NCBI RefSeq assembly: GCF_000813965.1
Contig: NZ_JWLI01000020.1
Coordinates: 1-64,000, forward strand
DNA from: Leisingera sp. ANG-M7
GTDB taxonomy: Bacteria > Pseudomonadota > Alphaproteobacteria > Rhodobacterales > Rhodobacteraceae
Reading direction: 5' to 3'
DNA: 64,000 bases
The notes below the pieces were generated by a model. It searched no databases. It was not told the origin of the DNA and was given only the letters and a program-made list of their open reading frames with translations. The position numbers were made by a program, and so were the translations under genes. This document shows positions 6,068 to 20,498 of this stretch, piece by piece; position 1 is the first letter of the stretch, and every line of letters starts with the position of its first letter.

Positions 6068-6642
6068 GCACCCGGCGGGTGGTGCTAGGGGTTTCCGGCG
6101 CTTCCGGCGCCATGCTCAGCTTGGAAGCTGCTCGGCATCTGGCCTCCCTTGGGATTGAGACCGACCTGGTTGCCAGCTCCGCCGCTAAGCGCACCCTCGC
6201 AGAGGAATGCGGCTCGGAAGCTTTGCAAACCCTCGAAGCATTGGTCACCCGCAGTCATGCAATCGATGACATCGGCGCCGCCATTGCGTCAGGCTCGGTT
6301 CCGGTTTCAGGAATGATCATTGCTCCCTGTTCGATGCGCTCCCTGGCCGCTATAGCGCATGGGCTCGACGATAATCTGCTGACACGGGCAGCGGGGGTAC
6401 AGCTCAAGGAGCGCAGGCGCCTGGTGCTGTTGGCGCGCGAAGCCCCGCTGACGCTGGCTCATCTTCGGAACATGACCGCGGCAGCTGAGATGGGCGCCAT
6501 CGTCATGCCACCGGTTCCTGCATTCTATCTCCCACACACCACGTTGACAGAAGTTGCCAGACAGATTGCGGCACGAGCAGTCGACCTCCTGGCTGTATCT
6601 CCCCCACGCGCGCAACCTTGGTCGCCCGAGGTTGAAGGTTAG
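6064..6642 (+). CDS. ubiX: UbiX-type flavin prenyltransferase
   Basis: The 192-residue protein starts STRRVVLGVSGASGAMLSLE, with the Gly/Ser-rich phosphate-binding start of UbiX. It also has IIAPCSMRSLAAIAHGLDDNLLTRAA and the later RRLVLLAREAPLT motif, both diagnostic for the family. It prenylates FMN with dimethylallyl phosphate to make the cofactor for UbiD. Its ATG overlaps the ubiD stop (ATGA), so the pair is translationally coupled. Length is normal. The C-terminal 12 residues (SPPRAQPWSPEVEG) are unremarkable. Confidence 0.95.
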   Translation: MSTRRVVLGVSGASGAMLSLEAARHLASLGIETDLVASSAAKRTLAEECGSEALQTLEALVTRSHAIDDIGAAIASGSVPVSGMIIAPCSMRSLAAIAHGLDDNLLTRAAGVQLKERRRLVLLAREAPLTLAHLRNMTAAAEMGAIVMPPVPAFYLPHTTLTEVARQIAARAVDLLAVSPPRAQPWSPEVEG

Positions 6643-6876: not shown

Positions 6877-6960
6877 GTTGACTTTAACCAGATACGGTAT
6901 TTCCTTGCACTCACAGAAATGCTGCACTTCAAGCAGGCGGCGGAGCAGTGTTTTGTTTCG
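6877..6960 (+). pseudogene. LysR-type regulator, N-terminal remnant
   Basis: Directly after an in-frame TAA (6874-6876) the frame reads VDFNQIRYFLALTEMLHF, then KQAAEQCFVS. This is the winged-helix start of LysR regulators (normally MDFNQIRYFLAL...NFTRAAEQCFVSQP). The initiator is now GTT. The match stops at the point where IS3-family transposase sequence begins. The rest of the gene is missing, so this is a dead fragment left by insertion and deletion. Confidence 0.6.
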
Positions 6961-7752
6961 GCTACCGCCGGATCGGCGTGTTGCTTGAGCGCAAGGGCAT
7001 GAGGATGAACCACAAGAAGCTGTATTGGCTCTAACGGGAGGAAGGCCTGTCGGTGAAGCGGCGGCGCGGCCGCAAGCGGGCCCGCGGATCTCGCACACCG
7101 ATGCCGGAGGCTGCTTATCCCAATGCGCGCGGGTCACTTGGCTTACTGGCTGACAGCTTCGGCCCATCCCGGAAATTCCGCATTCTGGAGGCGATAGACG
7201 ATTGCAGCCGCGAAAACCTGTGCCTGATTGCCGGCACCAGCATCTCCGGCGCACGTGTTGCGCGTGAGCTGGATACGCTGGTGCGGATCTACGGTAAACC
7301 CGGATGCAAAGTCAGCGATCGAGCCATTGTGGCGCCATTGGTTTGAGCCCAACGGCGAGGGGGACATAGTTCACGAGCCGGGCCATTCTGAGGTGGGCCG
7401 ATCAGAACGCAATTCCGCGGCACTATATCGACCCAGGGAAGCCGTAGCAGAACGCTTTTATCGAGTCATTCAACGGCAGCCTGCGCGACGAACTGCTGAA
7501 CGAGGAGATATTTGACCCCCTGGACGACGCCCGCCGGAAGCTGGTGCTCTGGTGTTACGATTACAACATCGTCAGGCCGCACTCATCGCTCGGGAACAAA
7601 ACACCGGCCGAAGCGCGCCGGACGCTTGAGCAATTTGAGGGCTCCGCGCCCGGCGCGCTTGCCCAGCCCGAAACCGACGACTACCAAAACCAAATGCCCT
7701 GCCCCTCAAAAACTCTCGTTGTGAACGAGGGGCCAGCTGGGGGCAGGTTACG
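6957..7752 (+). mobile_element. Decayed IS3-family element, orfB transposase remnant
   Basis: Three pieces of an IS3 OrfB integrase can be read. The first is FGYRRIGVLLERKGMRMNHK (from 6957), running through a TAA at 7032 into RRRGRKRARGSRTPMPEA and ...DSFGPSRKFRILEAIDDCSRE. The frame breaks near 7315-7365, where the conserved SDNGTE motif is destroyed. It resumes with SRAILRWADQNAIPRHYIDP, a TAG near 7445, then QNAFIESFNGSLRDELLN and YDYNIVRPHSSLGNKTPAEA. The DDE catalytic core is therefore broken by two stops and at least one indel. OrfA, the OrfB N-terminus and the left end are gone. The GGGGGCAGGTTA stretch near 7739-7750 may be the right end. It is non-functional. Confidence 0.85.
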
Positions 7753-7757
7753 TCATT

Positions 7758-7957
7758 TGCACCTACGCGCCTGCATTCCGGACTGGGGCAACGCAAAACG
7801 CCGGACAAATGCAATCAAGCACAGATGCAGGCGGCACAGCTGCTTCGAGAATATGCCCGGCAGGGCCAAGGATTGGAGGCGCATAGCGCCCCACTATGAT
7901 CGTTGGCCAAAGGTCTTCCTCTAAGCCATCGTCCTCGCGGAAACCGTTATTTGCTGA
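7758..7957 (+). mobile_element. IS5-family transposase C-terminal remnant
   Basis: The frame reads ACIPDWGNAKRRTNAIKH, then ENMPGRAKDWRRIAPHYDR and WPKVFL, a TAA, and AIVLAETVI. This is the C-terminal signature of IS5/IS427-type transposases (ENMFGRLKDWRRIATRYDRCPKVFLSAIALAATV). An in-frame stop interrupts it and the rest of the element is absent. It abuts the IS3 remnant, which suggests successive insertions at one site. It is non-functional. Confidence 0.65.
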
Positions 7958-8029
7958 ATATGAAAAATCGGGGAATTTGGAGTACTTTCTTAGGTGTTGA
8001 TCAGCCCCATCTGCGTTGCCCGGCTTTGT

Positions 8030-8092
8030 TGTCAGCCCACGTTCACGGCGCAAGCCTGCGATAAGCGAAGTCTTTCCTTCGAGCCGTTTCAT
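8030..8092 (-). pseudogene. Short-chain dehydrogenase, N-terminal stub
   Basis: The first codons read MKRLEGKTSLIAGLRRERG, matching the start of sorbitol-dehydrogenase-like SDR proteins (MKRLEGKTALITGAARGIG). The similarity ends after about 20 residues and the frame continues into unrelated sequence. Its ATG overlaps the stop of the kinase gene (ATGA). It was therefore probably the next gene of that operon before the insertion elements deleted it. Confidence 0.5.
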
Positions 8093-9042
8093 TCGTGAAT
8101 CTCTTTCCTTGCCAGATACTGTCGTGCCAGCACGCGGGTAGTTCCTATGAACCGTTGATTGCGGGCCTTGGATCCGGGCTCATCCATCCGGCTAATGATC
8201 CAACCCACATATGTCGCTGACCTCAGCACCAGGAAAAGGTCGAGTGAGGTCAAGTCGATCGCCCGCACTGACAGGTACCCGGCTATCAGCGCATCACGCA
8301 GCGCCGGGTAGTCGGTCTCCCGTATGTTTCTAAGCAAGGTGGTGGCTAGATCAAAGAGGCGGAAGCCAAATCCGCTGTCGTCGAAATCGATCAACTGCAG
8401 CTTGCCGCCGTCTTTCATTATGTTTTCGCGCACGAGGTCTGCGTGGATAAGCCCGTAGTCCAGGGCTGTTTCCAGCTGCTGCAGTTCAGCATCAGCTTCG
8501 CCGCGCAGGGCAATAAACAGCGCACGGTCCTCTTTGGTCAGGCTGGGGTTTTCCCAAAACCGGCCCCAAAGCGGATTGACACCAAGCAGGCCAGCCCGGT
8601 CCCAGGACCAGCGGCTGAAACCCCTTGGCGGGATCCAGCGGTCGGAGACCGTGTGCAACCGGGCCATTTCGCGGCCGATTCCATAAAAGAGGCTAGTGCG
8701 GTCTTCCGAGTTCAGGCCGCCACCAGTCCGGCCGATCGGGGCGCCGGAGAGCCAGGTCAGCATATCTGCCTGGAACCCGTCGGCCCTATGCAAGAACTCT
8801 CCTGAGGCGGCGGCGACCGGGGCAGGCACATGCAAGCCGCCCGCTGCCGTGGCGTTCATCCATTGCAGTTCCGACCACAGCTCTGCATCGGTCCGGTAGC
8901 CGGGGCGGTGCAGGCGCAGGGCATAGGCGCGCCCGGCGTGATCGACCCGGTAGACCTGGTTTTCGCGGGTGGCGATCAGGCTGGTCTCCGCACCCTCCAT
9001 CCCCCAAAGCGTCAGGGATTGCTCCACGGCTGCCGCTGTCAT
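8089..9042 (-). CDS. Phosphotransferase of the APH/hydroxylysine-kinase type
   Basis: The 317-residue product has the aminoglycoside phosphotransferase/choline kinase fold. It shows the VYRVDHAGRAYALRLHRPG nucleotide-binding lobe (about residues 28-46), the catalytic loop GLIHADLVRENI (about 198) and the metal-binding LIDFDDSGFG (about 216). The enzyme should phosphorylate a small hydroxylated amine with ATP. Its gene overlaps the preceding AGXT2L-type gene. In animals the same family pair is hydroxylysine kinase with phosphohydroxylysine phospho-lyase, so the substrate is inferred to be an amino alcohol or hydroxy-amino acid. Homoserine kinase or antibiotic resistance seems less likely from the neighbours. 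Confidence 0.85.
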   Translation of the reverse strand: MTAAAVEQSLTLWGMEGAETSLIATRENQVYRVDHAGRAYALRLHRPGYRTDAELWSELQWMNATAAGGLHVPAPVAAASGEFLHRADGFQADMLTWLSGAPIGRTGGGLNSEDRTSLFYGIGREMARLHTVSDRWIPPRGFSRWSWDRAGLLGVNPLWGRFWENPSLTKEDRALFIALRGEADAELQQLETALDYGLIHADLVRENIMKDGGKLQLIDFDDSGFGFRLFDLATTLLRNIRETDYPALRDALIAGYLSVRAIDLTSLDLFLVLRSATYVGWIISRMDEPGSKARNQRFIGTTRVLARQYLARKEIHE

Positions 9043-10334
9043 GGCTGCACCGGGGTTTCTGCCAGCACTTCATCCAGGGTGTCGAACAGCAGGTCCGTAT
9101 TTCCCCTGGAGAAAGGCATCGGCGGGCGGATCTTCAAGGTGTTCCTGTGGCGGCCCAGCTTGGAATGGATGATGCCGCGGTGGCGCATGGCGTTGATCAC
9201 CAGGTCGGTGAAGGCAACGGCCGGTTCCTTGCTGGCGCGGTCCAACACCATTTCCGCGCCAAACACCATGCCGGAACCGCGCGCATCGCCAATGACATCA
9301 TATTTCTCCTGCAATGCGCGCAGCCGGGCGCGGGCATGGGCGCCGACCGCCTCGGCATGGGTTAGCAGGTTCTTGTCCTCGATCTCCTCCAGAACGGCCA
9401 TTGCCGCAGCGCAGGACACAGGGTTGCCGCCGAAGGTGTTGAAATAGCGGTAACCCGAGCGGAATGTCTGGAGGATTTCGCTGCGGGTGACGATGCCGCC
9501 GACCGGGTGTCCATTGGCCATTGGCTTGCCCAGTGTCATCACATCCGGCACCACGCCCATCTTCTGATGCGCCCACATATGGGTGCCGGTGCGGCCGAAG
9601 CCGGACTGCACCTCGTCGCAGATCAGCAGGCCGCCAGCCTTGCGCACCACCTCGGCGGTGGGTTTCAGCCAGCCGTCCGGATGGCTCGGGAAGCCCTCGT
9701 TCAGGAAGAAGGGGCAGATCACCAGCGCGGCAAAACCGGTGCCGGCCTCCTCATGCGCAGCGATCTGTTCGGCCACGGTGGCAGCAAATTTGGTGCCGTC
9801 AGGATCCGGGTTGCGGTAGCTGTCGGGCGCTTCGGCGAAACGGAAATACTGCGCTAGCCCGAAGCCCACCGTTGGCGTGTTCGAGCAGCTGAGCTGGCTG
9901 ACCAGAGCAGTATTGCCATGATAGGTCGCGTCGGTGGCCACGATGCCGCGTTTGCCGGTCATCCCTTCGGCCATGCGCAAGGCGATATCGTTGGCCTCTG
10001 ACCCGGTGCAGGTCAGGATGGCAGTATCCAGCGAGGCGTCCATGGTGCCGGTCAATTTCTCGGTATAGTCGAGAATTCCATCGTGCAGATAGCGCGTGTG
10101 GGTGTTGAGCGTTGCGGCTTGGCGGCAGATCGCCTCCACCACCCGCGGGTTGCAATGGCCCACATGCGGCACGTTGTTGTAGCAGTCTAGGTATTTGCGC
10201 CCGTCCGCATCCCACAGCCAGACACCCTCGCCCTTCACGATATGCAGCGGTTCGTCATAGAAGGTGGAGAAGTTTGGCCCCAAGAGCCGGGCGCGCCGGT
10301 CGATGAGGTCCTGAGATCTGGCGGGCAGGGTCAT
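9039..10334 (-). CDS. Class-III PLP enzyme of the AGXT2L (phospho-lyase) group
   Basis: A 431-residue fold-type I PLP enzyme. It has TGSEANDIALR, DEVQSGFGRTG and TLGKPMANGHPVGG, with the Schiff-base Lys in GKPMANG. Several stretches match the ethanolamine-phosphate/phosphohydroxylysine phospho-lyase branch rather than ordinary omega-transaminases: YLDCYNNVPHVGHCNP, NTHTRYLHD, FNTFGGNPVSCA and HRNTLKIRPPM. Those enzymes eliminate phosphate and ammonia from a phospho-amino alcohol to give an aldehyde. The ATG at 10334 has AAGGAAG 4 bases upstream and is preferred to a TTG 18 bases earlier. The gene is coupled to the kinase downstream and the aldehyde dehydrogenase upstream. A plain transaminase remains possible. 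Confidence 0.88.
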   Translation of the reverse strand: MTLPARSQDLIDRRARLLGPNFSTFYDEPLHIVKGEGVWLWDADGRKYLDCYNNVPHVGHCNPRVVEAICRQAATLNTHTRYLHDGILDYTEKLTGTMDASLDTAILTCTGSEANDIALRMAEGMTGKRGIVATDATYHGNTALVSQLSCSNTPTVGFGLAQYFRFAEAPDSYRNPDPDGTKFAATVAEQIAAHEEAGTGFAALVICPFFLNEGFPSHPDGWLKPTAEVVRKAGGLLICDEVQSGFGRTGTHMWAHQKMGVVPDVMTLGKPMANGHPVGGIVTRSEILQTFRSGYRYFNTFGGNPVSCAAAMAVLEEIEDKNLLTHAEAVGAHARARLRALQEKYDVIGDARGSGMVFGAEMVLDRASKEPAVAFTDLVINAMRHRGIIHSKLGRHRNTLKIRPPMPFSRGNTDLLFDTLDEVLAETPVQP

Positions 10335-10348
10335 GGCGCTTCCTTGCG

Positions 10349-11836
10349 TCAAAGCTGAATCCAGGCGGATTTCAGGTCGGAATATTTCTCCAGTGCGTGC
10401 AGGGATTTGTCATGTCCGTTGCCAGACTGTTTGACGCCGCCCAAGGGCACGGTCAGGTCGGAGCCGCCATAGGTGTTCACATGCACGATGCCCGCGCGGA
10501 TACCAGCCACCATCCGGTGCGCGCGGCTGAGGTTCGCGGTCCAGACACCGGCAGAGAGGCCATAGGTGGTGGCATTGGCCAGCCGGACTGCTTCTTCGTC
10601 GTCCTTAAAGGTGGTGACGGCCAGCACCGGGCCGAAGACCTCGTTCCGGAACAGGCTGTCCTGCGGTTTCACGCCCGTCATTATGGTTGGTTGCATATAA
10701 AAACCGCCGGTTTCCTGCAGGATGCGTTTGCCGCCGCTGCGCAGCTCGGCACCCTCGGCCTCGGCGCGTGCAGCAAACTCCAGGTTGGCCTCCAGCTCAG
10801 CCAGCGAATGCACCGCTCCGATCTGGCTGGCGAGGTCGAGCGGGTCGCCGACCCGGAACGCCTCAGCGTGGCGGGCCATTTCGACGATGAAATCCTCGGC
10901 TATGTCTTCCTGCACCAGCAGGCGCGAACCGGCCACACAGACCTGGCCGGAGTTGCGGAAAATACCCGCGGCAGAGACTTTGGCCGCCTCGACCAGATCC
11001 GGGGCATCGTTGAAGATGATGTTGGGGGACTTGCCGCCCAACTCCAGATAGCAGCGCTTGAGGTTGGATCGGGCTGAATATTCCAGCAGCCGCCGCCCGG
11101 TAGTGCCGGAGCCGGTGAACACCATGATGTCCACATCCATGCTGAGCGCCAGGGTCTCGCCCACCACGCTGCCTTTGCCGGTGACCACATTGAAAACGCC
11201 CGGCGGCACACCAGCCTCGACCGCCAGCTCGGCGATCTTCAACAGGCTGAGCGAGGCGCTTTCAGCCGGTTTCAGAACAATCGAGTTGCCGGCCGCCAGC
11301 GCCGGGGCAATTTTCCAGGACCCGATCATCAGCGGAAAATTCCAGGGCACGATGGCCCCGACCACCCCGACCGGTGCGTGATGCACCAGCCCCAGCACAT
11401 TCTCCGCCGTGGGGGCGATCTGGCCATAGACCTTGTCGATCGCCTCGCCGTAGTAGCGGAAGGTGGCGGCAGCGGAGAGAGCCTCTGCCTTGATTGCCAT
11501 GGCGATTTCGGTGCCGTTGTCGCGCACGCCCAGCACCGCCAGTTCCAGCGCCCGCGCCTCGATCAGGTCACCCAGCCGCATCAGCACCTTCTTGCGGTCG
11601 GCAGGGGCCATACGGGACCAGTGCCCGGCCTCAAAGGAGGCCCGCGCAGAGGCAATGGCGCGCTCCATGTCGGCGGGGGCTCCTTCGGCCAGCCGGGTTA
11701 GAGTTTGGCCGTCGATAGGGGAGATCACCTTTAGCGTGCCGCCGGTCAGGGCGTCTTGCGCCTCGCCGTCGATGAAATGGCCCTGCGCCGGCACCTCCAG
11801 CTGTCGGAGGGTGTCGATTTCGCTTTGGTTCAGCAT
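10349..11836 (-). CDS. NAD(P)-dependent aldehyde dehydrogenase
   Basis: A 495-residue aldehyde dehydrogenase of normal length. It has PWNFPLMIGSWKIAPALAAGN, the glutamate motif LELGGKSPN, the catalytic Cys in GQVCVAGSR and the C-terminal PLGGVKQSGNG. It should oxidise a linear or amino aldehyde to the acid in the cytosol. Its gene lies between the TctA permease gene (5-base gap) and the phospho-lyase gene. It is well placed to take the aldehyde made by that enzyme. Confidence 0.95.
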   Translation of the reverse strand: MLNQSEIDTLRQLEVPAQGHFIDGEAQDALTGGTLKVISPIDGQTLTRLAEGAPADMERAIASARASFEAGHWSRMAPADRKKVLMRLGDLIEARALELAVLGVRDNGTEIAMAIKAEALSAAATFRYYGEAIDKVYGQIAPTAENVLGLVHHAPVGVVGAIVPWNFPLMIGSWKIAPALAAGNSIVLKPAESASLSLLKIAELAVEAGVPPGVFNVVTGKGSVVGETLALSMDVDIMVFTGSGTTGRRLLEYSARSNLKRCYLELGGKSPNIIFNDAPDLVEAAKVSAAGIFRNSGQVCVAGSRLLVQEDIAEDFIVEMARHAEAFRVGDPLDLASQIGAVHSLAELEANLEFAARAEAEGAELRSGGKRILQETGGFYMQPTIMTGVKPQDSLFRNEVFGPVLAVTTFKDDEEAVRLANATTYGLSAGVWTANLSRAHRMVAGIRAGIVHVNTYGGSDLTVPLGGVKQSGNGHDKSLHALEKYSDLKSAWIQL

Positions 11837-11840
11837 GTTG

Positions 11841-13367
11841 TTACCCCTGCTGGCTGGAATGTTCGTAGTCGGGCCCGACTGGTTCCGGCTTCTGCTTGGC
11901 CTTCTGCTCGCGGATCAGCGTGCGGATGTGCAGCACCAGAATTCCGATGATCATCACAAAGATGATTGCAGCGATGGGGCGGCTGATGAAGTCGATCGGG
12001 GTCTTCACCGCCGCCATCGCCGCGCGCAGCTTGACCTCCATGATACCGCCCAGGACCATGCCCAGGATGATCGGCACGATCGGCAGGTTCAGCCGCTTGA
12101 GGATCAGCCCCAGCACGCCGAAGCCTGCGGCGATGGCACAGTCGGTGATCGAATTGCGCAGGGAATAGACGCCGATGAAGGACAGGATCAGGATCATCAT
12201 GCCGAGGAACCGGGTCGGGATCTGGATGATTTTCAACAGCAGGTTGGTCGAGAACAGCAGGAACACCAGCACGATCACGTTGAGCAGGATCAGCGCCAGA
12301 TAGAGTGCCATAACGAAATCCAGCTGGGTTTCGAACAGCTGCGGCCCCGGGATCACGTTATGAACATAGAACACCGACAGCATCATCGCCGTCAGCGCCT
12401 CGCCCGGGATGCCCAGGGCCAGCAGCGGGATCATCGCCGCACCCGGGACAGCGTTGTTTGCGGCCTCAGATGCGACAAGGCCTTCGGGAGAGCCATTGCC
12501 GAAGGCGTCCGGAGTCTTCGAGCTTTTCTGCGCGTAGGTGTATGAGAGGAACTGCGCGGTGAATTCACCGACGCCGGGGATCATGCCCATAAGCACACCA
12601 AGGGAGGAGGAAACGGTGGCAATGCGCTTGATGCCCAGCAGCTCTTTCATGCCCGAGAGCATGTTGCCCTGCACATGGGCCTCGCCGGGGGCGTGGTCCT
12701 TTTCGATCAGCAGAAGGAACGCCTGGCTGAGGGCAAAAAGGCCAAGGACCACGACAATCAAGTCAAATCCCGAGGACAGCCATGTCTGGTCGAAGGTGAA
12801 GCGTTTGGTGTATTTGACCGGCTCCAGCCCGACGGTGTTGAGGAAGATGCCGAAGCAAGCCAGCATGCCAGCGGCAAAAGTCTGGCCGCGGTGCGCCACC
12901 ACAACCAGCAGGATTCCCATGAAGGCAGCCAGAAAGATCTCGCGGCTGCCGAAATGCGGGGCGACCAGCGCCAGAAGCGGCGCCAGCAAGATCAGGCAGA
13001 TGACTGAGAAGATGCCGCCGAAGAAGGACGCCGTATAAGCCAAAGACAGCGCCCGGTGGCCTTCCTTGCGCTTGGTCATCGGGTAGCCGTCATAAGTGGT
13101 CAGCGCGTTGGCTGGCGTGCCGGGGGTATTGATCAGGATTGCGGGTATCGCACCGCCGTACATTGAACTGCCGTAGATCCCCAGCAGCAGCGACAGCCCG
13201 ACGATCGGTTCAAAGGCAAAGGTCGCAGGCAGCAGGATTGCAATGGCGACCGCAGGCCCGACACCCGGCAGCGCGCCAATGACGACACCGCCAATGGAGC
13301 CGATTACCAGAGCGGCCAGAACCTGCCATTGGGCAAGAATTTGCAGGCCGGAAAGAAGCGTGTCCAT
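11841..13367 (-). CDS. Tripartite tricarboxylate transporter, large permease (TctA family)
   Basis: A 508-residue membrane protein with about 12 hydrophobic spans. It shows the two conserved TctA loops GALPGVGPAVAIAILLPATF (near residue 33) and GGAIPAILINTPGTPANALT (near 72). With TctB and the periplasmic TctC it imports a small anion or related solute using an ion gradient. The gene starts 7 bases after tctB. The substrate cannot be read from the sequence; the neighbouring enzymes suggest the compound degraded by this operon. Confidence 0.95.
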   Translation of the reverse strand: MDTLLSGLQILAQWQVLAALVIGSIGGVVIGALPGVGPAVAIAILLPATFAFEPIVGLSLLLGIYGSSMYGGAIPAILINTPGTPANALTTYDGYPMTKRKEGHRALSLAYTASFFGGIFSVICLILLAPLLALVAPHFGSREIFLAAFMGILLVVVAHRGQTFAAGMLACFGIFLNTVGLEPVKYTKRFTFDQTWLSSGFDLIVVVLGLFALSQAFLLLIEKDHAPGEAHVQGNMLSGMKELLGIKRIATVSSSLGVLMGMIPGVGEFTAQFLSYTYAQKSSKTPDAFGNGSPEGLVASEAANNAVPGAAMIPLLALGIPGEALTAMMLSVFYVHNVIPGPQLFETQLDFVMALYLALILLNVIVLVFLLFSTNLLLKIIQIPTRFLGMMILILSFIGVYSLRNSITDCAIAAGFGVLGLILKRLNLPIVPIILGMVLGGIMEVKLRAAMAAVKTPIDFISRPIAAIIFVMIIGILVLHIRTLIREQKAKQKPEPVGPDYEHSSQQG

Positions 13368-13374
13368 GGGAGCC

Positions 13375-13914
13375 TCACAGATAGGTCAGCGCGAAGGCGC
13401 GCAGCGCATCGGGCAGATGCTGATAGATCTCGCCTGCAGGGATCTTCACCTGTAGGAAACCGCGGAAGATCAGCGGGACGCAGACTGCAAACAAAAGAGA
13501 AAAAGCCAGATGCTGCGGGCGGTGGAAGCCTGCGCGCAAGGTCAGGAACAAGGCAAACAGGATTGTTGACGGCAGGTAGCCGGCGAGCGGGACAATGGCG
13601 ACATAAGCCAGGAAGTAGACGACGTATTCAAGCGATCGCAGCCAGAACATGATCTCTTTCAACCGGCCGTAAATGCGCGGTGACACCATCGAGCCCAGCA
13701 GGTGAAAGGCCCCGAAGATCACCATTCCCCAGACCGCAATGCTGGGCCACAGCGACGGCTGGCCGAACCATTTGGTGCGCTTCACCCATTTGGTCTGTTC
13801 TCCAAGCTGGCTTAGCAGGAACAGTGCGAATACCAGGAAAACCACGGCAAAAACCAGATCGCCGGGCCGCCGGTAGCGCTGAAACAGTTCCTGAAAATAC
13901 TTGATGTGTGTCAT
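13375..13914 (-). CDS. Tripartite tricarboxylate transporter, small permease (TctB family)
   Basis: A 179-residue protein with four or five hydrophobic spans (FAVVFLVFALFLLSQL, VWGMVIFGAFHLLG, VVYFLAYVAIVPLAGYL, LLFAVCVPLIF), as in TctB. The ATG at 13914 is chosen because GAGGAGGA lies just upstream; an in-frame start 39 bases earlier has no such signal. It is the partner of the TctA and TctC proteins encoded on either side. Confidence 0.9.
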   Translation of the reverse strand: MTHIKYFQELFQRYRRPGDLVFAVVFLVFALFLLSQLGEQTKWVKRTKWFGQPSLWPSIAVWGMVIFGAFHLLGSMVSPRIYGRLKEIMFWLRSLEYVVYFLAYVAIVPLAGYLPSTILFALFLTLRAGFHRPQHLAFSLLFAVCVPLIFRGFLQVKIPAGEIYQHLPDALRAFALTYL

Positions 13915-13942
13915 CGCAGCGTCCTCCTCCTGCCGCGGAAGA

Positions 13943-13969
13943 AACCGGGGCACAACAGGCGCCCCGGTT
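13943..13969 (-). terminator. Stem-loop after the tctC-like gene
   Basis: A perfect 9-bp stem (AACCGGGGC/GCCCCGGTT) with a 9-base loop lies between the binding-protein gene and the membrane genes. There is no T-run. It is more likely an mRNA-stabilising or partial-termination hairpin that favours the binding protein than a full terminator. Confidence 0.55.
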
Positions 13970-13973
13970 CAGG

Positions 13974-14903
13974 TTATTCGCCGACCAAAGCGTTGACCTC
14001 GGCCAGACCGGCGATGTCGTTCTCGATCTGCTGGGCAGAGGCCTCAGCGTCCGTCCAGTAGAGCAGAACACCGGTTTCCTTTGTCAGGTTCTGTGCGGCC
14101 TCGGATTCCAGCGCGGCCTGGGCAGCAGCGGCAATCTTCTCGCGGGCATCCGCTGGGGTGTCCTTATGCACGAACAGCCCGTTCCACAGGGACAGTTTCA
14201 GGTCCGGAACCAATTCCGACATGGTCGGAACATCAGGGGTCAATGCGGTGCGTTCAGAGCCTATGGTCGCCAGCACTTTGATGTTGTCGATGCAGGGCAG
14301 AAGGGTTTGCAGGGTGCCGTTCACCACGTCCACGTCGCCTGACGCCAGCACGTTGCAGTCAAGCTGGTCGTAGGCCGCTTCGCTGGCGAAATCGAAGCCG
14401 GACTTGATGGCCGCTGCAAAGGTCACCTTGGTCGGCGCCAGGAACGTGCCGAAATGGCCCAGCGATACGTCATTCTCCGCGCCATAGGCTGCCAGTTCTT
14501 CCCAGCTGTCGTAGGGTTTGTCCGCAAGGGTCGCGACCACAAACGGATAGGTCAGGAAGATACCAATCGGATCAAAGGGATTGGGGTTCAGCTCCGGGAT
14601 ACCGATTTCGGGGCCGACCACCGGAACACCGATCACGAAGGAGCCAACAGTGTATCCGTCAGCTGGCGCATTAGCGACTTCTACGGCGCCCGGGAACGGA
14701 CCGCCGCCGCCGCCCGGCTTGTTCACCACAGCGGCGGGCACGCCGTACATTTCCTGGAACTTGTCTGCGATCATCCGTGTCAGCACGTCTTCCAGGTCGC
14801 CCGGAGGCCAGGGTACCACGAAGGATACCGGCTTCTCCGGATATTCTGCCATCGCGGCAGTGGCGCTGAGCACGGCGGCGGCAGCTGCAAGTTTGAGTTT
14901 CAT
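13974..14903 (-). CDS. Tripartite tricarboxylate transporter, periplasmic binding protein (TctC/Bug family)
   Basis: A 309-residue protein with a clear Sec signal peptide (MKLKLAAAAAVLSATAAMA, cut before EYPEKP). It is followed by the Bug-type start EYPEKPVSFVVPWPPGDLED and the VVNKPGGGGG loop that contacts the ligand carboxylate in this family. It captures the substrate in the periplasm for TctA-TctB. It is expressed with the Tm-1-like gene upstream (36-base gap). Confidence 0.95.
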   Translation of the reverse strand: MKLKLAAAAAVLSATAAMAEYPEKPVSFVVPWPPGDLEDVLTRMIADKFQEMYGVPAAVVNKPGGGGGPFPGAVEVANAPADGYTVGSFVIGVPVVGPEIGIPELNPNPFDPIGIFLTYPFVVATLADKPYDSWEELAAYGAENDVSLGHFGTFLAPTKVTFAAAIKSGFDFASEAAYDQLDCNVLASGDVDVVNGTLQTLLPCIDNIKVLATIGSERTALTPDVPTMSELVPDLKLSLWNGLFVHKDTPADAREKIAAAAQAALESEAAQNLTKETGVLLYWTDAEASAQQIENDIAGLAEVNALVGE

Positions 14904-14939
14904 AGTTTCCTCCCTTTTGAATTCTGTTTGTTCTGTTGA

Positions 14940-16181
14940 TCACGCCTTGCCGGACGGGACAGTTCCTACCGCCACCCAGCGGTCCAGGATCTCCAGCGCC
15001 GTTTGGGTGAAGGCAGGGTCGTTGATATGCGCTTCCAGCTCCGTCGCCTGGACGGCAGGGGCAACTGTTGCGCTCAGTTCGGTGATGAAGGCGTCCAGCC
15101 CCTCCGGATCGTGGCAGTCGCCGCCGGGGCGGTCCCATTCCTCAATCCCGCCTTTTGGAATGATCAGATGCGTGGGAGCCTTGCTTTCGCCAATCCGCTG
15201 GTTCAGTTCGCGCGCGATGCCGCGGCGTTCTTCGGCGGTGTAAAAGGTGTTCTTGACCAGTTTGTTATGGGTGTGGATCGGGCGTCCCTCGAACTGCGCC
15301 GGGATGTCCTGCCAGCCGGCAAAGTCGATCAGATCCATACAGCCCGGCGCAACGATTTGCGGGATGCCGGCCCGGCCTGCCGACAGGTGCCGGTCACGGC
15401 CGGCGTTGACCACCGAACCGGCCATCAGGTTGCCCAGCTCGCAGCCGGCGAAATCCATCACGCAGACAAAGCCGTTCTGCGCCGCGATCTGCTCAAAGGC
15501 CATGCCGCCCATGCCCATGGCGTGGAATACAGCCACCTCGTAGCCGCGCTGCTCCAGCTCCGGTTTCAAGGTTTTGATGTATTTCAGGCAGGAGGTGCCA
15601 AGCGACGTGACCCCGATCACCGGCCGCCCGCTGACTGCAGGCTCAGCAGCCCGCGCCGCTCCCAGAACGGCGCCTGCCGCCTGGGCAAGGGAGGACCGGC
15701 AAATGCTATTCAATCCGTAAAGCCCCCCGGCCCAGAGGATCATCTGGATATCCGGCGACAGCCGTTCCGCCGGGATCAGCGCCGAAAAGGAGACGGTGGA
15801 TACCACGTATTTCGGCAGCCCCACCGGCAGCGCCTGGCAGACGTCCAGTGCCAGATCAGTGCCCATAGTGCCACCCAGGATGATCACCCCGTCGATGCCG
15901 CCGTTACCGTGCAGCTCTTGCGCCAGTGCACACGCTCCGGCCGACATGATGTTCATCGCCACATGTTCACTGCCGCTGTCGACCGCCGCCTGGATAGAGC
16001 TGCCGCCGGCACTTGCCACCTTGTGCTTAGAGAAATCGGTGGGCTGCTCCGGGTCGCCCAGCACGCTGACATCCAGGGTCAAAACCCCGCCGCCCAAGCC
16101 ACGGATCTTCTGCGCCAGAAATTCCAGCTCTGCGTTCTTGGTGTCGTATGTGCCAATGACCAGAATAGTCTTATCAGTCAT
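14940..16181 (-). CDS. Tm-1-like ATP-binding domain protein (UPF0261)
   Basis: The 413-residue product starts MTDKTILVIGTYDTKNAELEF, the signature of the UPF0261/Tm-1-like family. It is named after the tomato virus-resistance protein Tm-1, whose N-terminal domain is an ATP-binding fold. Gly-rich stretches (IILGGTMGTDLA, GVTSLGTSCLKY, AMGMGGMAFEQI) and PKGGIEEWDRPGGD near the C-terminus agree. Bacterial members often accompany transporters and a TIM-barrel enzyme, but their reaction is unknown. No TIM-barrel partner is present here. The ATG at 16181 has GGGAGGGAGGA upstream; a longer reading would overlap the next gene. Confidence 0.9.
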   Translation of the reverse strand: MTDKTILVIGTYDTKNAELEFLAQKIRGLGGGVLTLDVSVLGDPEQPTDFSKHKVASAGGSSIQAAVDSGSEHVAMNIMSAGACALAQELHGNGGIDGVIILGGTMGTDLALDVCQALPVGLPKYVVSTVSFSALIPAERLSPDIQMILWAGGLYGLNSICRSSLAQAAGAVLGAARAAEPAVSGRPVIGVTSLGTSCLKYIKTLKPELEQRGYEVAVFHAMGMGGMAFEQIAAQNGFVCVMDFAGCELGNLMAGSVVNAGRDRHLSAGRAGIPQIVAPGCMDLIDFAGWQDIPAQFEGRPIHTHNKLVKNTFYTAEERRGIARELNQRIGESKAPTHLIIPKGGIEEWDRPGGDCHDPEGLDAFITELSATVAPAVQATELEAHINDPAFTQTALEILDRWVAVGTVPSGKA

Positions 16182-16206
16182 GAATTCCTCCCTCCCGCTG
16201 AAGGTT

Positions 16207-18669
16207 TCAGCCCCGCATGATTGCGCCCTTAGGATCATAGAAGGGGGTCAGCTGCACCTTCAGAGGGTACATTTTGCCCGCAATCTGCACCTCAAAACCG
16301 CCCTCATCGATCCAAGCCTTGCTGACGCCGCCCTCGCGGTGGAGGCTGGCGAGTCCGACCATTGCATGCAGCCGGAACCCCCAATCGCCGGAGGTTACAT
16401 GGCCAACTATCCCGCCATCTTTCCATATTGGCTCATTGTGGATGAGATAGGGCCCATCCTTGGCGCCGACACCTTCTGCGATGCAGGAGACGGTCCTGTA
16501 TTGCGTTGCCGGGTCGGCTTTTTTTTGCTCGGCCAGCTTGGCCTTGCCGAGGAAGTTGTCCGCTTTGTCAAGCGCCACTGCGAAACCGAGACCGGTTTCA
16601 AAGGGCGTGTCGTCCTCACCGATGTCGTGGCCGAAATGGCGGAAGCCTTTCTCCAGGCGGCAGGCATTCATCGCAAACATGCCCATGTGGCGCAGGCCCA
16701 GGGGTTCCCCGGCGTCCATCAGCGCCTCGTAGACGCAGATGGTGAATTCGGTTGGCATCATCAGCTCATAACCCAGCTCGCCCAGGAACGAGCGGCGGAT
16801 AGCCCAGCCGCGGGCATAGCCGATGTCGATCTCCTGAGCCGAACCAAAAGGGAAGGCTTCGTTCGATAGGTCATCACCCGAGATTGCAGATAGGATCTCG
16901 CGCGACTTCGGTCCGTGGATGGAGATCAGGCCATAGGCTGAGGTGGCGTCGAAGATCTCGAACCGCCACTCCGGGTCAGCGTGATCGCGGATCCAGGCCT
17001 GGTCGCGGATCTGGCCGGGGTGTCCGGTGATCACCATGAAACACTCGGCCGCAGTGCGGGTGATGGTGACATCCGCCTCGATGCCGCCGCGGGAGTTCAG
17101 GAACTGGGTGTAGACCGAGGTGCCGGTTGCCACGTCCATTTCCGCGCCGCAGACCCGGTTCAGCGCGCGCACCGCATCGGGGCCCTGCACCTGGATCTTG
17201 GCGTACATCGACTGTTCGATCAGCACGGCAGCGTCGCGCGCCGCCAAGCACTCTGCCTCAACATGCGGCGACCAGTCCTTCCACCACAGGTTCGGCTCCT
17301 CGTTCCAGCCATTCTGCTCAGGATCATAGTACATAGGTATTTCCCAACCGATACGTTCGGCAAAGGTCGCACCGGCGGCCTTCAGTCGATCATGCAGCGG
17401 CACCCGCCGCACGCCGCGGGCGCTTTGGATCTGGCGGCCGGCCCAGGAGACACCATAGTGGAAGCCCACCGATTCCGCGCTGCGGTCGTGGTTGTACTTG
17501 GTGTTGCGCTGGAACGGGTGCGCGCGGCGGGCCAGCATCGGCCCCATCCCGCGCGACGGCGCGCCATCGATCAGCCATTCCGCCATCGTCAGCCCGACGC
17601 CGCCTGAATTGAGGATGCCGTTGGAGTTCATGCCGGTTGCCACAAACAGGCCCTTGATCTCGCTTGTCGGCCCCAGGTAGGGGCGGCCGTCCGGGGTGAA
17701 GCTCTCCGGCCCGTTGAAGAAGGTTTGGATGCCCATCTCGCCCAGGGGCGGCATCCGCTCGAACATCTTTTCCAGGTTCGGCTCCACATGCTCCATGTCA
17801 AAGGGCAGTTCGTCGAACTCGAAATCCTCCGGGATACCATCGGCGCCATAGGGCTTGCCCAGCTTTTCGAAGGAGCCGATCAGCAGCTTGCCAGTGTCTT
17901 CCTTCCAGTAGGTGCGCTCCTCGGCGATGTTGAGGATCGGCTGGTCCTTGGGCAGCCCGTCGACCGGCTCGGTCACGATGTAGAAATGCTCGGTCGCGTG
18001 CAGCGGCACAGTGACACCATGCGCCTTGGCGAACAGATGGCTCCACATGCCGCCGGCCAGCAGCACCTTGTCCGTGGCGATCATGCCCTTGTCGGTTTCC
18101 ACGCCGACAATCCTGCTGCCGCGGACAACCAGCTGATTGACCTTGGTCCCCTCGAACAGCTTTGCGCCCTGCGCCTTGGCACCTTTGACCATGGCGACGG
18201 TCACATCCAGCGGGTTCACCTGGCCGTTGGAGGGCACGAAGAAGGCGGATTTCACATCGTCTGTTTCGATCCAGGGCCATTTCTCCTGCAGCTCCGAACG
18301 GGACAGCAGGAAGCTCTCGATCCCCATGCGGGCCGCGTGATCATGGCCGCGCAGCAGCTGCTCGTGCCGCACGTCGCCAATCGCCAGGTTGATGGTGCCG
18401 TTGGGCTTGTAGCCGGTGGCCTGGCCGGTCTCTTCCTCCAACTCGCGGAACAGACGGGCGGTGTATTTGCCCAGCTCGGTCTGGGCGGTGCTGTCGCGCA
18501 GCTGGCCAACAATCCCAGCCGCGTGCCAAGTGGTGCCGCTCGCGACCTTGCGCCGTTCGATCAGGACAGCAGACACCCCCCGTTTCGCCAGGTGGTACAG
18601 CGTAGAGACACCTATAATGCCGCCGCCGATGATCACCACATGGGCTTGTTCCGGGAGATTGTAAGCCAT
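16207..18669 (-). CDS. Dimethylglycine/sarcosine dehydrogenase-like flavoprotein with GcvT domain
   Basis: An 820-residue two-part enzyme. The N-terminal half is a DAO-type FAD domain with VVIIGGGIIGVSTLYHLA and SGTTWHAAG, whose His normally holds FAD covalently in this family. The C-terminal half (from about residue 420) is a folate-binding GcvT-like domain. Such enzymes demethylate N-methylated amines and pass the methylene group to tetrahydrofolate. It is first in the catabolic operon after iclR, 148 bases from the IclR-type operator region. The ATG at 18669 has AAGGA 8 bases upstream. A paralogue lies at 50774-53209. The substrate is unknown. Confidence 0.92.
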   Translation of the reverse strand: MAYNLPEQAHVVIIGGGIIGVSTLYHLAKRGVSAVLIERRKVASGTTWHAAGIVGQLRDSTAQTELGKYTARLFRELEEETGQATGYKPNGTINLAIGDVRHEQLLRGHDHAARMGIESFLLSRSELQEKWPWIETDDVKSAFFVPSNGQVNPLDVTVAMVKGAKAQGAKLFEGTKVNQLVVRGSRIVGVETDKGMIATDKVLLAGGMWSHLFAKAHGVTVPLHATEHFYIVTEPVDGLPKDQPILNIAEERTYWKEDTGKLLIGSFEKLGKPYGADGIPEDFEFDELPFDMEHVEPNLEKMFERMPPLGEMGIQTFFNGPESFTPDGRPYLGPTSEIKGLFVATGMNSNGILNSGGVGLTMAEWLIDGAPSRGMGPMLARRAHPFQRNTKYNHDRSAESVGFHYGVSWAGRQIQSARGVRRVPLHDRLKAAGATFAERIGWEIPMYYDPEQNGWNEEPNLWWKDWSPHVEAECLAARDAAVLIEQSMYAKIQVQGPDAVRALNRVCGAEMDVATGTSVYTQFLNSRGGIEADVTITRTAAECFMVITGHPGQIRDQAWIRDHADPEWRFEIFDATSAYGLISIHGPKSREILSAISGDDLSNEAFPFGSAQEIDIGYARGWAIRRSFLGELGYELMMPTEFTICVYEALMDAGEPLGLRHMGMFAMNACRLEKGFRHFGHDIGEDDTPFETGLGFAVALDKADNFLGKAKLAEQKKADPATQYRTVSCIAEGVGAKDGPYLIHNEPIWKDGGIVGHVTSGDWGFRLHAMVGLASLHREGGVSKAWIDEGGFEVQIAGKMYPLKVQLTPFYDPKGAIMRG

Positions 18670-18805
18670 CAAATCGTCCTTCAGCCCGCTGTTGCAGGCG
18701 ATCCGCAGGTTTCAGACCGGGAGCGGAGAGGCGCTGGAGAGCGCAGGCTTTAGCCGCTCAGATGCAGAACTTGTGGCAGAAAGATTCGATTCACAGAAAT
18801 GTTTC

Positions 18806-18829
18806 GCACCAAAGGTGCGATTATTGCAC
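18806..18829 (-). promoter_or_regulatory. Probable IclR operator upstream of the catabolic operon
   Basis: The 24-bp element has the form GCAC-N5-GTGCGATTA-N2-GCAC and matches a second copy at 19698-19721 in every fixed position. It lies just before the demethylase gene and overlaps the last codons of iclR. Binding by the adjacent IclR protein is inferred. Confidence 0.7.
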
Positions 18830-19600
18830 TATCTGCGTGGCCGGACTGTGCGGCGATGGTGCACCGTTCAAAGCGGTCTCCAGCTGCCGGATTGCGGCTC
18901 CCAGCAACGCGGCCAGTTCTGCTTGGCGGGCGGCATCCAGGTTTAGATCGGGAACCGCAATCGCTATGGTGCCTGCTGGGTCCTTGCCTTCCGTGAAAAA
19001 CGGCATCGCTACGCTGGCGACCCCGATCTCAACTGTGTTGCGGGCGCACGAATAGCCGCGGCTTCGGGTTTCACGGAGAACATCTCTTAGTTCAGCCTCA
19101 TCTGTCACAGTGAAGCGTGTCAGTTTCTCCCGTTTTAGGCTTAGCAGCCGCTCCCGGGTGTCCTCAGAACAGAATGCCAGAAACGCCAGTCCGGAAGAGG
19201 AAGAGTGGTAGGGGTAGGTTTCCGCAGGCTGCAGATTGATCACATTGCCCCGTGCTGGCAGAGTGAACGAAGCAGTTCCCAAGCCCACGGCGCCAGGAAT
19301 ACCGACATGAACGGTTTCATTTGCCTGCGCGGACAGCCACTGTGTCACTACTTGGGTTGCCTTTACCATCGGTACAGTGGCTTCGCGCAGGCGCGCCAGA
19401 GACAGAAAGGCGTGGCCCAACCGGTACTTTCGGGTTTCCGGGTTCTGCTCGATGAAACCGTGATTGATGAGAGACAGAAGCAATCTGCGAGTCACGGCTT
19501 TGTCTTGATCCGTGGCGCGGGCCAAGTCGTTCAAGCCGATTTCAAGGTTCTCCAGCGAAAACTGGCGCAGCAGAAACATCGCTTTGTCCACGGTTTTCAT
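18821..19600 (-). CDS. IclR family transcriptional regulator
   Basis: A 259-residue regulator. The N-terminal winged helix covers about residues 5-65 (FLLRQFSLENLEIGLNDLAR, ...VTRRLLLSLINHGFI). The IclR effector domain follows, with SSSGLAFLAFCSEDTRERL and the RGYSCARNTVEIGVASVAMPFF stretch. The ATG at 19600 follows AGGGAAGCCC; a longer reading adds 29 residues without a family match. It is transcribed in the same direction as the catabolic operon, and matching operators stand before both units. It probably controls itself and the operon in response to the substrate. Confidence 0.92.
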   Translation of the reverse strand: MKTVDKAMFLLRQFSLENLEIGLNDLARATDQDKAVTRRLLLSLINHGFIEQNPETRKYRLGHAFLSLARLREATVPMVKATQVVTQWLSAQANETVHVGIPGAVGLGTASFTLPARGNVINLQPAETYPYHSSSSGLAFLAFCSEDTRERLLSLKREKLTRFTVTDEAELRDVLRETRSRGYSCARNTVEIGVASVAMPFFTEGKDPAGTIAIAVPDLNLDAARQAELAALLGAAIRQLETALNGAPSPHSPATQIVQ

Positions 19601-19697
19601 TGGGCTTCCCTCACGCAATTCGGTTCCGCATGTTCTACCGGAGCCAGGTTTTTGATCGCTAACGTACCATATGGTTCGGGCGGGCATTTAAATTTCT

Positions 19698-19868: not shown

Positions 19869-20498
19869 ATGGTGACACTGAACTTGGATAGGCCGCCGGG
19901 AGAAACAATTGTGCTTCGGGCAACCCCTGAGGACAATGCCGCCGTGCCGAAAGACCAGTCGTTTTCGCAACTTACCCTTTGGCTTCTTGCTGTACGCGAT
20001 CAGCGTGACAGAGAGGCATTTGCGGACATGTTTGACTTTCTGGCGCCGCGCCTGAAGGGTTTTGTAATCCGGTGCGGTGCAAGGCCTGCGCTGGCGGAAG
20101 AAATTGTCCAAGATGTAATGCTCACCATTTGGCGCAAAGCGGCGCTGTTTGATCCGCACAAGGCGCAGGCCTCGGCTTGGATTTATCAGATCGCCCGCAA
20201 CCGTCATATCGACATTGTCCGCAAGGAAAGCCGACCCGTGCCGGACGAATTGGGTGAAGATCCTGGCACCGAGCCCGACGCCAGTCAAATTATCGGCCTG
20301 GAGCAAGAAGCAGAACAATTGAAGCACGCCATAGCGCAACTGCACCCCGATCAGAAAGAGATGATCGTAAAGGCCTACATGGGTGACCTGACCCATCAGG
20401 AAATCAGCAGTCAGACCGGCCTGCCCCTGGGAACTGTAAAATCGCGCATCCGCCTGGGACTCGGGCGGCTGCGCAAGGAACTAAAAGGATTGCGTTAA
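19869..20498 (+). CDS. rpoE: ECF sigma factor RpoE (ECF11, singlet-oxygen response type)
   Basis: A 209-residue ECF sigma factor. Region 2 includes MFDFLAPRLKGFVIRCGARP and EEIVQDVMLTIWRK; region 4 has the helix-turn-helix THQEISSQTGLPLGTVKSRI. It matches RpoE of R. sphaeroides, which turns on singlet-oxygen defence when ChrR lets it go. chrR follows directly (TAA then ATG). The upstream sigmaE promoter implies autoregulation and would place transcription start at about the ATG of 19869, giving a leaderless message. A GTG at 19911 with GGGAGA upstream would give a 195-residue protein with a normal leader and is an alternative start. Confidence 0.93.
   Translation: MVTLNLDRPPGETIVLRATPEDNAAVPKDQSFSQLTLWLLAVRDQRDREAFADMFDFLAPRLKGFVIRCGARPALAEEIVQDVMLTIWRKAALFDPHKAQASAWIYQIARNRHIDIVRKESRPVPDELGEDPGTEPDASQIIGLEQEAEQLKHAIAQLHPDQKEMIVKAYMGDLTHQEISSQTGLPLGTVKSRIRLGLGRLRKELKGLR

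What the first reader, a model, noticed from the sequence alone, without database searches (positions are those of the whole stretch)
8030..18669. Putative new catabolic pathway: kinase, phospho-lyase, aldehyde dehydrogenase plus demethylase and TTT importer
The class-III PLP enzyme has AGXT2L-branch signatures and overlaps an APH-type kinase gene, as in the hydroxylysine and phosphoethanolamine pathways. An aldehyde dehydrogenase follows logically. The operon also carries an importer, a Tm-1-like protein, a dimethylglycine-dehydrogenase-like flavoprotein and (formerly) an SDR. A coherent reading is import of an N-methylated amino alcohol or hydroxy-amino acid, demethylation, phosphorylation, loss of phosphate and ammonia, and oxidation of the aldehyde. 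I know of no described pathway with this gene set.
Basis: partly seen in the sequence, partly recalled or inferred. Interest (0 to 1): 0.8.

Follow-up and report, generated by a model that had tools for sequence, protein, structure and literature searches.

The report
Predicted octopamine and adrenaline breakdown operon
A marine-type bacterium carries an operon that very likely breaks down adrenaline- or octopamine-like amines by tagging them with phosphate and then splitting off phosphate and ammonia, a route that would explain a bacterial activity whose genes have not been assigned as far as I know.

Summary
The gene set is real: on the minus strand IclR, dimethylglycine-dehydrogenase-like (DMG), Tm-1-like, TctC/B/A, aldehyde dehydrogenase, class III PLP enzyme, APH kinase, then an SDR cut off after about 13 codons beside an IS remnant. 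The PLP enzyme's two best solved relatives are phospho-lyases. Neighbours of relatives point to the substrate: 11 of 34 same-family loci of the window's type have homoprotocatechuate (hpa) genes within about 10 kb, against 0 of 83 other PLP loci; 32 of 34 such genomes have the ring-cleaving enzyme HpaD, against 71 of 261 others. The gene pair recurs beside hpa or phenylacetate (paa) genes in rhizobia, Gammaproteobacteria and Actinobacteria. The window's genome has an hpa cluster. Best reading: beta-hydroxyphenethylamines (octopamine, noradrenaline; synephrine and adrenaline after N-demethylation) are phosphorylated, lose phosphate and ammonia to give an arylacetaldehyde, and are oxidised into the hpa or paa pathway. 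No biochemistry was done; Tm-1 and the importer's ligand are unexplained. New variant of a known kind.

The parts
18821..19687 (-). IclR-family regulator (HTH_IclR + IclR_C)
   Evidence: an IclR gene is near many related loci
16207..18672 (-). dimethylglycine dehydrogenase-like flavoprotein (DAO, FAO_M, GCV_T, GCV_T_C), predicted N-demethylase handing the methyl carbon to folate
   Evidence: PDB best 5l46, 4p9s, 4pab, then 1pj5; His of TWHAAG, H229 and D534 aligned with a His, H225 and D552 of dimethylglycine oxidase
14940..16238 (-). Tm-1-like / UPF0261 protein, function unknown
   Evidence: near in 26 of 33 clade loci
13974..14903 (-). TctC periplasmic binding protein with an acidic loop PPGDLED in place of GGxTD
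13375..13953 (-). TctB small membrane subunit
11841..13367 (-). TctA large membrane subunit
10349..11836 (-). aldehyde dehydrogenase, predicted arylacetaldehyde dehydrogenase
9039..10352 (-). class III PLP enzyme, predicted phospho-lyase
8089..9042 (-). APH-type kinase, predicted beta-hydroxyphenethylamine kinase
7763..8092 (-). reading frame with the first about 13 codons of an SDR gene, then unrelated sequence
6900..7720 (+). degenerate IS transposase remnant at the broken end of the operon (limits approximate; recognised by eye from the sequence and ORF 7544-7924, no family search)

Best explanation
A catabolic operon for beta-hydroxyphenethylamines. A cation-adapted TTT importer brings in octopamine- or noradrenaline-type amines. 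The DMG-like flavoprotein removes N-methyl groups (synephrine to octopamine, adrenaline to noradrenaline), passing the carbon to tetrahydrofolate. The APH kinase phosphorylates the benzylic hydroxyl. The class III PLP enzyme expels phosphate and ammonia, giving the arylacetaldehyde. The aldehyde dehydrogenase oxidises it to 4-hydroxyphenylacetate or 3,4-dihydroxyphenylacetate, which the hpa cluster on contig C5 of the same genome cleaves. Shown here: gene content, families, conserved motifs, linkage and co-occurrence with hpa/paa genes, own hpa cluster. Inferred: every substrate and every reaction. Weakest steps: the importer's ligand, the demethylase's substrate, Tm-1.
For: Phospho-lyase branch: PDB best hits 5g4i (381.8 bits) and 6tor (324.4), next 185.8. 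Linkage: hpa genes near 11 of 34 same-family group-A loci vs no hpa, paa or hmgA gene near 83 other PLP loci, Fisher 3.3e-7. Co-occurrence: HpaD in 32 of 34 group-A genomes vs 71 of 261 others (1.9e-14); 21 of 78 in genomes with only other PLP types and 50 of 183 without PLP. Other lineages: R. leguminosarum with hpaB-I; P. aurescens TC1, source of the solved 5g4i enzyme, with kinase, permease, hpaE, hpaI and hydratase; Mesorhizobium AR07 and Pseudomonas insulae beside paa; Marinobacterium rhizophilum and Aliamphritea beside hpa. In 80 genome-contig loci, aromatic neighbours in 13 of 53 with kinase types other than KINe vs 0 of 19 with KINe (Fisher 0.012). Own genome: hpaI,H,G, a decarboxylase, two HpaD types, E,F,R on C5; a second class III enzyme beside paaABCE on C45. 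DMG gene with the pair in one stretch in G104 (L061), S. fredii (about 15 kb apart) and a Granulosicoccaceae MAG (L233). TctC loop GD-x-[ED]-D in 38 of 40 distinct TctC rows found with the window's TctC; the other 2, at 29% and 25% identity, have GGxTD, as do the 3 PDB alignments shown.
Against: No activity was measured. A1RDF1 is reported to act on phosphoethanolamine (recalled), so the branch does not prove an aryl substrate. The Fisher values ignore phylogeny. Clade B, the other large clade in the 112-leaf group around the window, has no aromatic neighbour in 67 leaves, so the PLP branch need not share one substrate. 23 of 34 group-A loci show no hpa gene in the stretch fetched, some of them cut by contig ends. 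Two of the 11 rest on HpaF alone (L041, L043), though HpaD is about 12 kb away in both genomes. G047 and G181 show no HpaD. None of 10 genome-contig loci with the Arthrobacter-type kinase and none of 6 with the window-type kinase met the hpa/paa thresholds; L185, L192 and, in part, L197 have a phenol-hydroxylase homologue. No relative of the rhizobial HpaB or of the Arthrobacter phenol hydroxylase was found in the window's genome, so 4-hydroxyphenyl substrates would need another hydroxylase there. TTT importers are known for carboxylates (recalled). The DMG gene is near only 1 of 33 clade loci.
Confidence: 0.68

Rival explanations
1. Ethanolamine-type route: the kinase and lyase act on small aliphatic amino alcohols (ethanolamine, N-methylethanolamines, aminopropanol, hydroxylysine) and the dehydrogenase on the aliphatic aldehyde.
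For: Best solved relatives are phospho-lyases, one named ethanolamine-phosphate phospho-lyase; a related pair on an E. coli plasmid lies near a GABA transaminase and a succinate-semialdehyde dehydrogenase gene, with no aromatic genes in the stretch viewed.
Against: Linkage and co-occurrence with hpa/paa genes. The KINe-type pairs and clade B, which lack such neighbours, are other parts of the tree.
Confidence: 0.12
2. The substrate is a beta-hydroxy aromatic amino acid (beta-hydroxytyrosine type) imported as a carboxylate; lysis of its phosphate gives an arylpyruvate that goes through homogentisate.
For: TTT importers usually carry carboxylates (recalled); hmgA lies in the same stretch as the pair in S. 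fredii NXT3 and L054.
Against: Most linked ring genes are homoprotocatechuate, not homogentisate, genes. An arylpyruvate would need no aldehyde dehydrogenase. Solved relatives act on terminal amines (recalled). The TctC loop has added acids.
Confidence: 0.07
3. The operon is a patchwork: kinase-lyase serve aromatic amino alcohols, but DMG-like, Tm-1 and TctABC serve a separate N-methylated substrate. (Not exclusive of the kinase-lyase part of the best explanation.)
For: The DMG, Tm-1, TctABC set occurs without an adjacent kinase-lyase pair in Yoonia and on G201 contig C28.
Against: The set and the pair share one stretch in the window, G104, S. fredii and a Granulosicoccaceae MAG; G201 has the pair on another contig. 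Tm-1 and TctA are near most clade loci, nearly all of which lack DMG.
Confidence: 0.22

Closest known systems
A1RDF1 phospholyase of Paenarthrobacter aurescens TC1 (PDB 5g4i/5g4j) and human ethanolamine-phosphate phospho-lyase (6tor)
   Same: Class III PLP phospho-lyase branch, shared NNVxHVGH-type and R[YF]L motifs; A1RDF1 lies near an APH kinase, permease, SDR and hpa genes
   Different: Reported assay substrate is phosphoethanolamine (recalled); here an O-phosphorylated beta-hydroxyphenethylamine is predicted
Hydroxylysine, ethanolamine and aminopropanol kinase/phospho-lyase routes (recalled)
   Same: Order of reactions: kinase, phospho-lyase, aldehyde dehydrogenase
   Different: Aromatic substrate, N-demethylase, TTT importer, hpa/paa downstream
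Homoprotocatechuate (hpa) and phenylacetate (paa) pathways
   Same: Predicted downstream ring degradation; linked or present in the genome
   Different: Entries for tyramine, dopamine and other aromatic amines are in print (two reference titles seen); this adds a gene set for beta-hydroxylated amines
Dimethylglycine dehydrogenase / dimethylglycine oxidase
   Same: Domain order and aligned flavin and folate-site residues
   Different: Linked to aromatic-amine genes; substrate untested
Octopamine dehydratase EC 4.2.1.87 and synephrine dehydratase EC 4.2.1.88 (recalled)
   Same: Same net product, 4-hydroxyphenylacetaldehyde
   Different: Described without ATP and, as far as I recall, without genes

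Membership tests
AGXT2L-type class III phospho-lyases | closer to solved phospho-lyases than to transaminases | tested here: met
   5g4i 381.8 and 6tor 324.4 bits, next best 185.8
AGXT2L-type class III phospho-lyases | NNVxHVGH motif near the N-terminus (noted here, not a published criterion) | tested here: met
   In the window; in 152 of 208 PLP relatives by strict pattern, so not in 56; in own-genome paralogue L002 and not in L003, L006, L008; L004, L005, L007 could not be read
AGXT2L-type class III phospho-lyases | phosphate and ammonia elimination, no transaminase activity | not testable with these tools
   needs purified enzyme
APH-type small-molecule kinases | APH domain with catalytic HxDxxxxN and DFD | tested here: met
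   PF01636 8.9e-30; motifs
Dimethylglycine dehydrogenase family | DAO, FAO_M, GCV_T, GCV_T_C domains with flavin His and folate-site Asp | tested here: met
   (roles of the residues recalled)
Dimethylglycine dehydrogenase family | oxidation of dimethylglycine | not testable with these tools
   genome context argues for another substrate
Tripartite tricarboxylate transporters | TctA, TctB and TctC together | tested here: met
   PF01970, PF07331, PF03401
Tripartite tricarboxylate transporters | GGxTD loop of solved TctC relatives | tested here: not met
   GDLED here; GD-x-[ED]-D in 38 of 40 distinct rows, GGxTD in the other 2 and in BugD, 25hk, 4x9t. The loop is not a formal family criterion; filed as TTT by components, as a subfamily by loop
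Beta-hydroxyphenethylamine catabolic cluster (proposed here) | linked or co-occurring aromatic ring degradation | tested here: met
   in the window's genome on another contig, not linked
Ethanolamine or hydroxylysine catabolic operon | activity on the aliphatic amino alcohol | not testable with these tools
   context does not favour it

The most novel reading that the evidence does not exclude
A dedicated bacterial route for adrenergic amines: an amine-adapted TTT importer takes up adrenaline, noradrenaline, synephrine or octopamine; a folate-linked flavoprotein demethylates; a kinase and a phospho-lyase together perform what was described as octopamine or synephrine dehydratase; the ring goes through homoprotocatechuate. 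The same kinase-lyase core, linked to hpa or paa, occurs in Alphaproteobacteria, Gammaproteobacteria and Actinobacteria and gives the crystallised enzyme A1RDF1 its natural substrate.
Probability: 0.42. Interest if true: 0.8.

Novelty: new variant of a known kind. Interest (0 to 1): 0.66.

Why it matters
If true, it assigns genes to the bacterial removal of the beta-hydroxyl and amine from octopamine, synephrine, noradrenaline and adrenaline, an activity known for decades and, as far as I recall, without sequences. It gives a natural substrate class to a solved phospho-lyase, predicts a TTT subfamily that binds amines instead of carboxylates, and lets genomes of soil and marine bacteria be scored for adrenergic-amine use. 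It can be tested with a few purified proteins.

Tried and rejected
Considered first and dropped: N-demethylated carnitine (4-amino-3-hydroxybutyrate) to succinate semialdehyde; the hpa and paa neighbours gave a better answer. Ethanolamine/hydroxylysine kept as a rival only. The idea that all PLP relatives share one role failed: clade B (67 leaves, 0 aromatic neighbours) and the KINe group (0 of 19 genome-contig loci) do not show the link.

Errors made and corrected. The trees were rooted on a paralogue translated in the wrong strand, so their root is arbitrary; redid the tree with proper outgroups, and clade statements come. Group A (34 loci, 34 genomes) was first read off the earlier trees; one search confirms 33 of its loci plus the window as one clade and puts L085 (G247) outside it. 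The paralogue motif check had the same strand fault and was redone, where L004, L005 and L007 could not be read and were dropped. A pattern search for the loop of the two other own-genome TctC proteins found none, so they are no control. Searches of the own genome for 4-hydroxyphenylacetate hydroxylases were empty, and the tool warns that an empty answer without a positive control shows nothing. A class-wide search found R. leguminosarum-type PLP genes in 12 of 385 genomes at E <= 1e-140; their surroundings were not examined, save for G000, G075 and G210, whose loci were already in hand.

Literature: ten searches (one search was on Tm-1). Searches returned nothing; the others were read as listings, of at most 20 rows each out of up to 616 papers. 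No listed title or abstract start described a kinase/phospho-lyase route for octopamine or related amines. Passages only were seen of PMC12718150, PMC3390384 and PMC10816480. The papers on A1RDF1, AGXT2L and Cuskey and Olsen 1988 are not held; what I say of the activities of A1RDF1 and AGXT2L enzymes is recalled. The library lacks most subscription papers, so absence there is weak.
Full report
What is there. On the minus strand the window holds an operon-like run: DMG-like 16207-18672, Tm-1-like 14940-16238, TctC 13974-14903, TctB 13375-13953, TctA 11841-13367, aldehyde dehydrogenase 10349-11836, class III PLP enzyme 9039-10352, APH kinase 8089-9042, with an IclR gene just upstream on the same strand at 18821-19687. 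After the kinase comes the start of an SDR gene, about 13 codons, then unrelated sequence and a transposase remnant. The window is C13:1-64000 of a 4.58 Mb genome in 58 contigs.

Enzyme branch. The PLP protein matches the phospho-lyase A1RDF1 (5g4i, 381.8 bits) and human ethanolamine-phosphate phospho-lyase (6tor, 324.4) far better than other solved relatives (next 185.8). The NCBIfam best match, PRK06148, is a subfamily model and below its cut-off. The kinase is APH-type (8.9e-30) with catalytic motifs.

Conservation. Of 295 same-family genomes (own included), 112 have a PLP relative at E <= 1e-100, 122 matches in all by my count; I fetched wide stretches around 117 of the 121 outside the window (60; not those of G139, G215, G219 and one of G155). 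A tree with proper outgroups puts the window in a clade of 41 leaves (support 0.958). In the 33 same-family loci of that clade other than the window, a kinase is adjacent in 33, Tm-1 is near in 26, TctA in 24, the aldehyde dehydrogenase in 23, a second class III enzyme (PLP2) in 23, an SDR in 4, the DMG-like gene in 1. In clade B (60 same-family loci), the other large clade of the 112-leaf group around the window, the figures are Tm-1 0, TctA 0, dehydrogenase 1, PLP2 1, SDR 0.

Substrate class from neighbours. Annotated relatives gave the lead: Ruegeria THAF33 and AD91A, Pseudosulfitobacter DSM 107133, Shinella PSBB067 and R. leguminosarum ATCC 14479 carry the pair near hpa genes, the last with genes annotated as hpaD, E, I, H, R, an isomerase, a fumarylacetoacetate-hydrolase-family gene, a flavin reductase and a 4-hydroxyphenylacetate 3-hydroxylase. 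I viewed 11 annotated plasmid records chosen by hand: hpa or paa in 7 (THAF33, DSM 107133, ATCC 14479, P. aurescens, Mesorhizobium AR07, AD91A, PSBB067), hmgA alone in S. fredii NXT3, none in the stretches of Yoonia SS1-5, R. pomeroyi DSS-3 and the E. coli plasmid. Counted without choice: 11 of 34 group-A loci (the 33 plus L085, just outside the clade) have an hpa gene over fixed identity thresholds, two of them HpaF alone; 0 of 83 other same-family PLP loci have any hpa, paa or hmgA gene (Fisher 3.3e-7). Among 80 named genome-contig loci (the best 80 of at least 590), by type of adjacent kinase: rhizobial type 10 of 15, KINm 3 of 22, window type 0 of 6, Arthrobacter type 0 of 10, none adjacent 2 of 8, KINe 0 of 19; the four non-KINe types together 13 of 53 against 0 of 19 (Fisher 0.012). 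Most hpa queries came from R. leguminosarum, which favours rhizobia; hpaE, hpaI and hydratase queries from P. aurescens were included.

Co-occurrence. HpaD of either type (TIGR02298 over cut-off in 37; the R. leguminosarum type at E <= 1e-90 in 92) is in 103 of 295 genomes: 32 of 34 group-A genomes, 71 of 261 others (1.9e-14); in genomes with only other PLP types 21 of 78, without PLP 50 of 183. The 34 include G247 (L085) and G139, placed by 72% identity because its contig is short; both have HpaD, so without them it is 30 of 32. In 14 of the 34 the two genes start within 20 kb of each other; in the window's own genome they are on different contigs. These tests do not correct for phylogeny.

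Other lineages. In P. aurescens TC1 the solved enzyme A1RDF1 lies near an APH kinase, permease, SDR, aldehyde dehydrogenases, hpaE, hpaI and an hpaH-like hydratase. Mesorhizobium AR07 and Pseudomonas insulae have the pair beside paaABCE and paaZ; Streptomyces torulosus has the PLP gene near paaAB with a kinase about 5 kb away; Marinobacterium rhizophilum, Aliamphritea spongicola and Sphingobium vermicomposti have the pair near hpa genes. A 4-hydroxy- or dihydroxyphenyl ring fits hpa; an unsubstituted ring fits paa. The compounds that a vicinal amino-alcohol kinase and phospho-lyase would turn into the arylacetaldehydes feeding both pathways are octopamine, noradrenaline and 2-phenylethanolamine; this step is chemical inference.

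Own genome. G000 has hpaI, H, G, a PLP decarboxylase, two kinds of HpaD, E, F and R on contig C5, and a PLP2 relative (75%) on C45 near paaABCE and a thiolase. No relative of the rhizobial HpaB or of the Arthrobacter phenol hydroxylase was found. If real, this favours catechol substrates (noradrenaline, adrenaline), which need no hydroxylase, but remote hydroxylases may have been missed.

Demethylase. Close relatives of the DMG-like protein (E <= 1e-250) are in 3 of 295 genomes, G000, G104 and G201, all with a group-A PLP gene. In the six DMG loci looked at (window, L061, L098, L099, L109, L233) Tm-1 and TctA/TctC are near in 6, an OYE-type flavoprotein in 5 (not the window, whose genome has only 46-52% relatives elsewhere), the kinase-lyase pair in 4, in L099 about 15 kb away. 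S. fredii adds folD, purU and electron-transfer genes, as expected for folate-linked demethylation. In the alignment with dimethylglycine oxidase the His of TWHAAG, H229 and D534 face a His, H225 and D552 (roles recalled). The window's substrate would then be an N-methyl form such as synephrine or adrenaline; this is inference.

Importer. Searching all loci in hand with the window's TctC gave 41 rows, 40 after dropping one copy of the window itself: 38 carry GD-x-[ED]-D, among them copies only 37-51% identical; the other two, a second TctC in L045 (29%) and one in L207 (25%), have GGxTD, as do BugD and two more solved relatives. Extra acids in that loop would suit a cation; that the loop binds the ligand is recalled. 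Several rhizobia carry an APC-type permease gene instead or as well. A 4-hydroxyphenylacetate hydroxylase was made to accept tyramine and octopamine by changes to acidic residues (passage in PMC10816480), an analogy only.

Limits. No enzyme was assayed; Tm-1 stays unexplained (one literature search, listing only); clade B shows that the PLP branch is not uniform. Verdict: a kinase/phospho-lyase route, a known kind of chemistry, very probably serving aromatic beta-hydroxyamines, with a plausible N-demethylating front end.

Noticed in passing
window 4646-6642 +: UbiD-like decarboxylase and a Flavoprotein-domain gene (flavin prenyltransferase-like) side by side near the operon's broken end.
   Followed up: no
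window 19869-21134 +: Two adjoining ORFs that look by eye like an ECF sigma factor and a ChrR-type cupin anti-sigma factor (no family search).
   Followed up: no
L179 (G000 contig C45) 2277-12247: Second class III enzyme and an IclR gene near paaABCE, a thiolase and a sulfatase in the window's own genome; may serve phenethylamine.
   Followed up: partly
L108 (G000 contig C5) 13302-17924: A DAO-family oxidoreductase and a sarcosine-oxidase-alpha-like folate protein directly after the hpa cluster; could be another N-demethylase.
   Followed up: no
clade B loci, e.g. L075, L076, L079: A widespread same-family kinase-PLP pair with no aromatic and almost no operon neighbours; nearby gene families include nicotinate phosphoribosyltransferase-like and nicotinamidase-like ones, named by eye. 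Substrate unknown.
   Followed up: partly
L174 (E. coli plasmid NZ_CP107722) 5682-8749: SDR, kinase and PLP genes near a GABA transaminase, succinate-semialdehyde dehydrogenase and IS26; kinase and PLP of this type with such an SDR recur in Pseudomonas. Probably another amino alcohol.
   Followed up: no
L061 and L056 (G104): One genome with two group-A pairs: one with DMG, Tm-1 and the OYE-type flavoprotein, one beside an hpa cluster.
   Followed up: partly
window, about 52160-53215 and 62837-63895 -: Two further distant DMG-like stretches (32% and 24% identity) in the same window, within ORFs 50774-53209 and 62813-63910.
   Followed up: no
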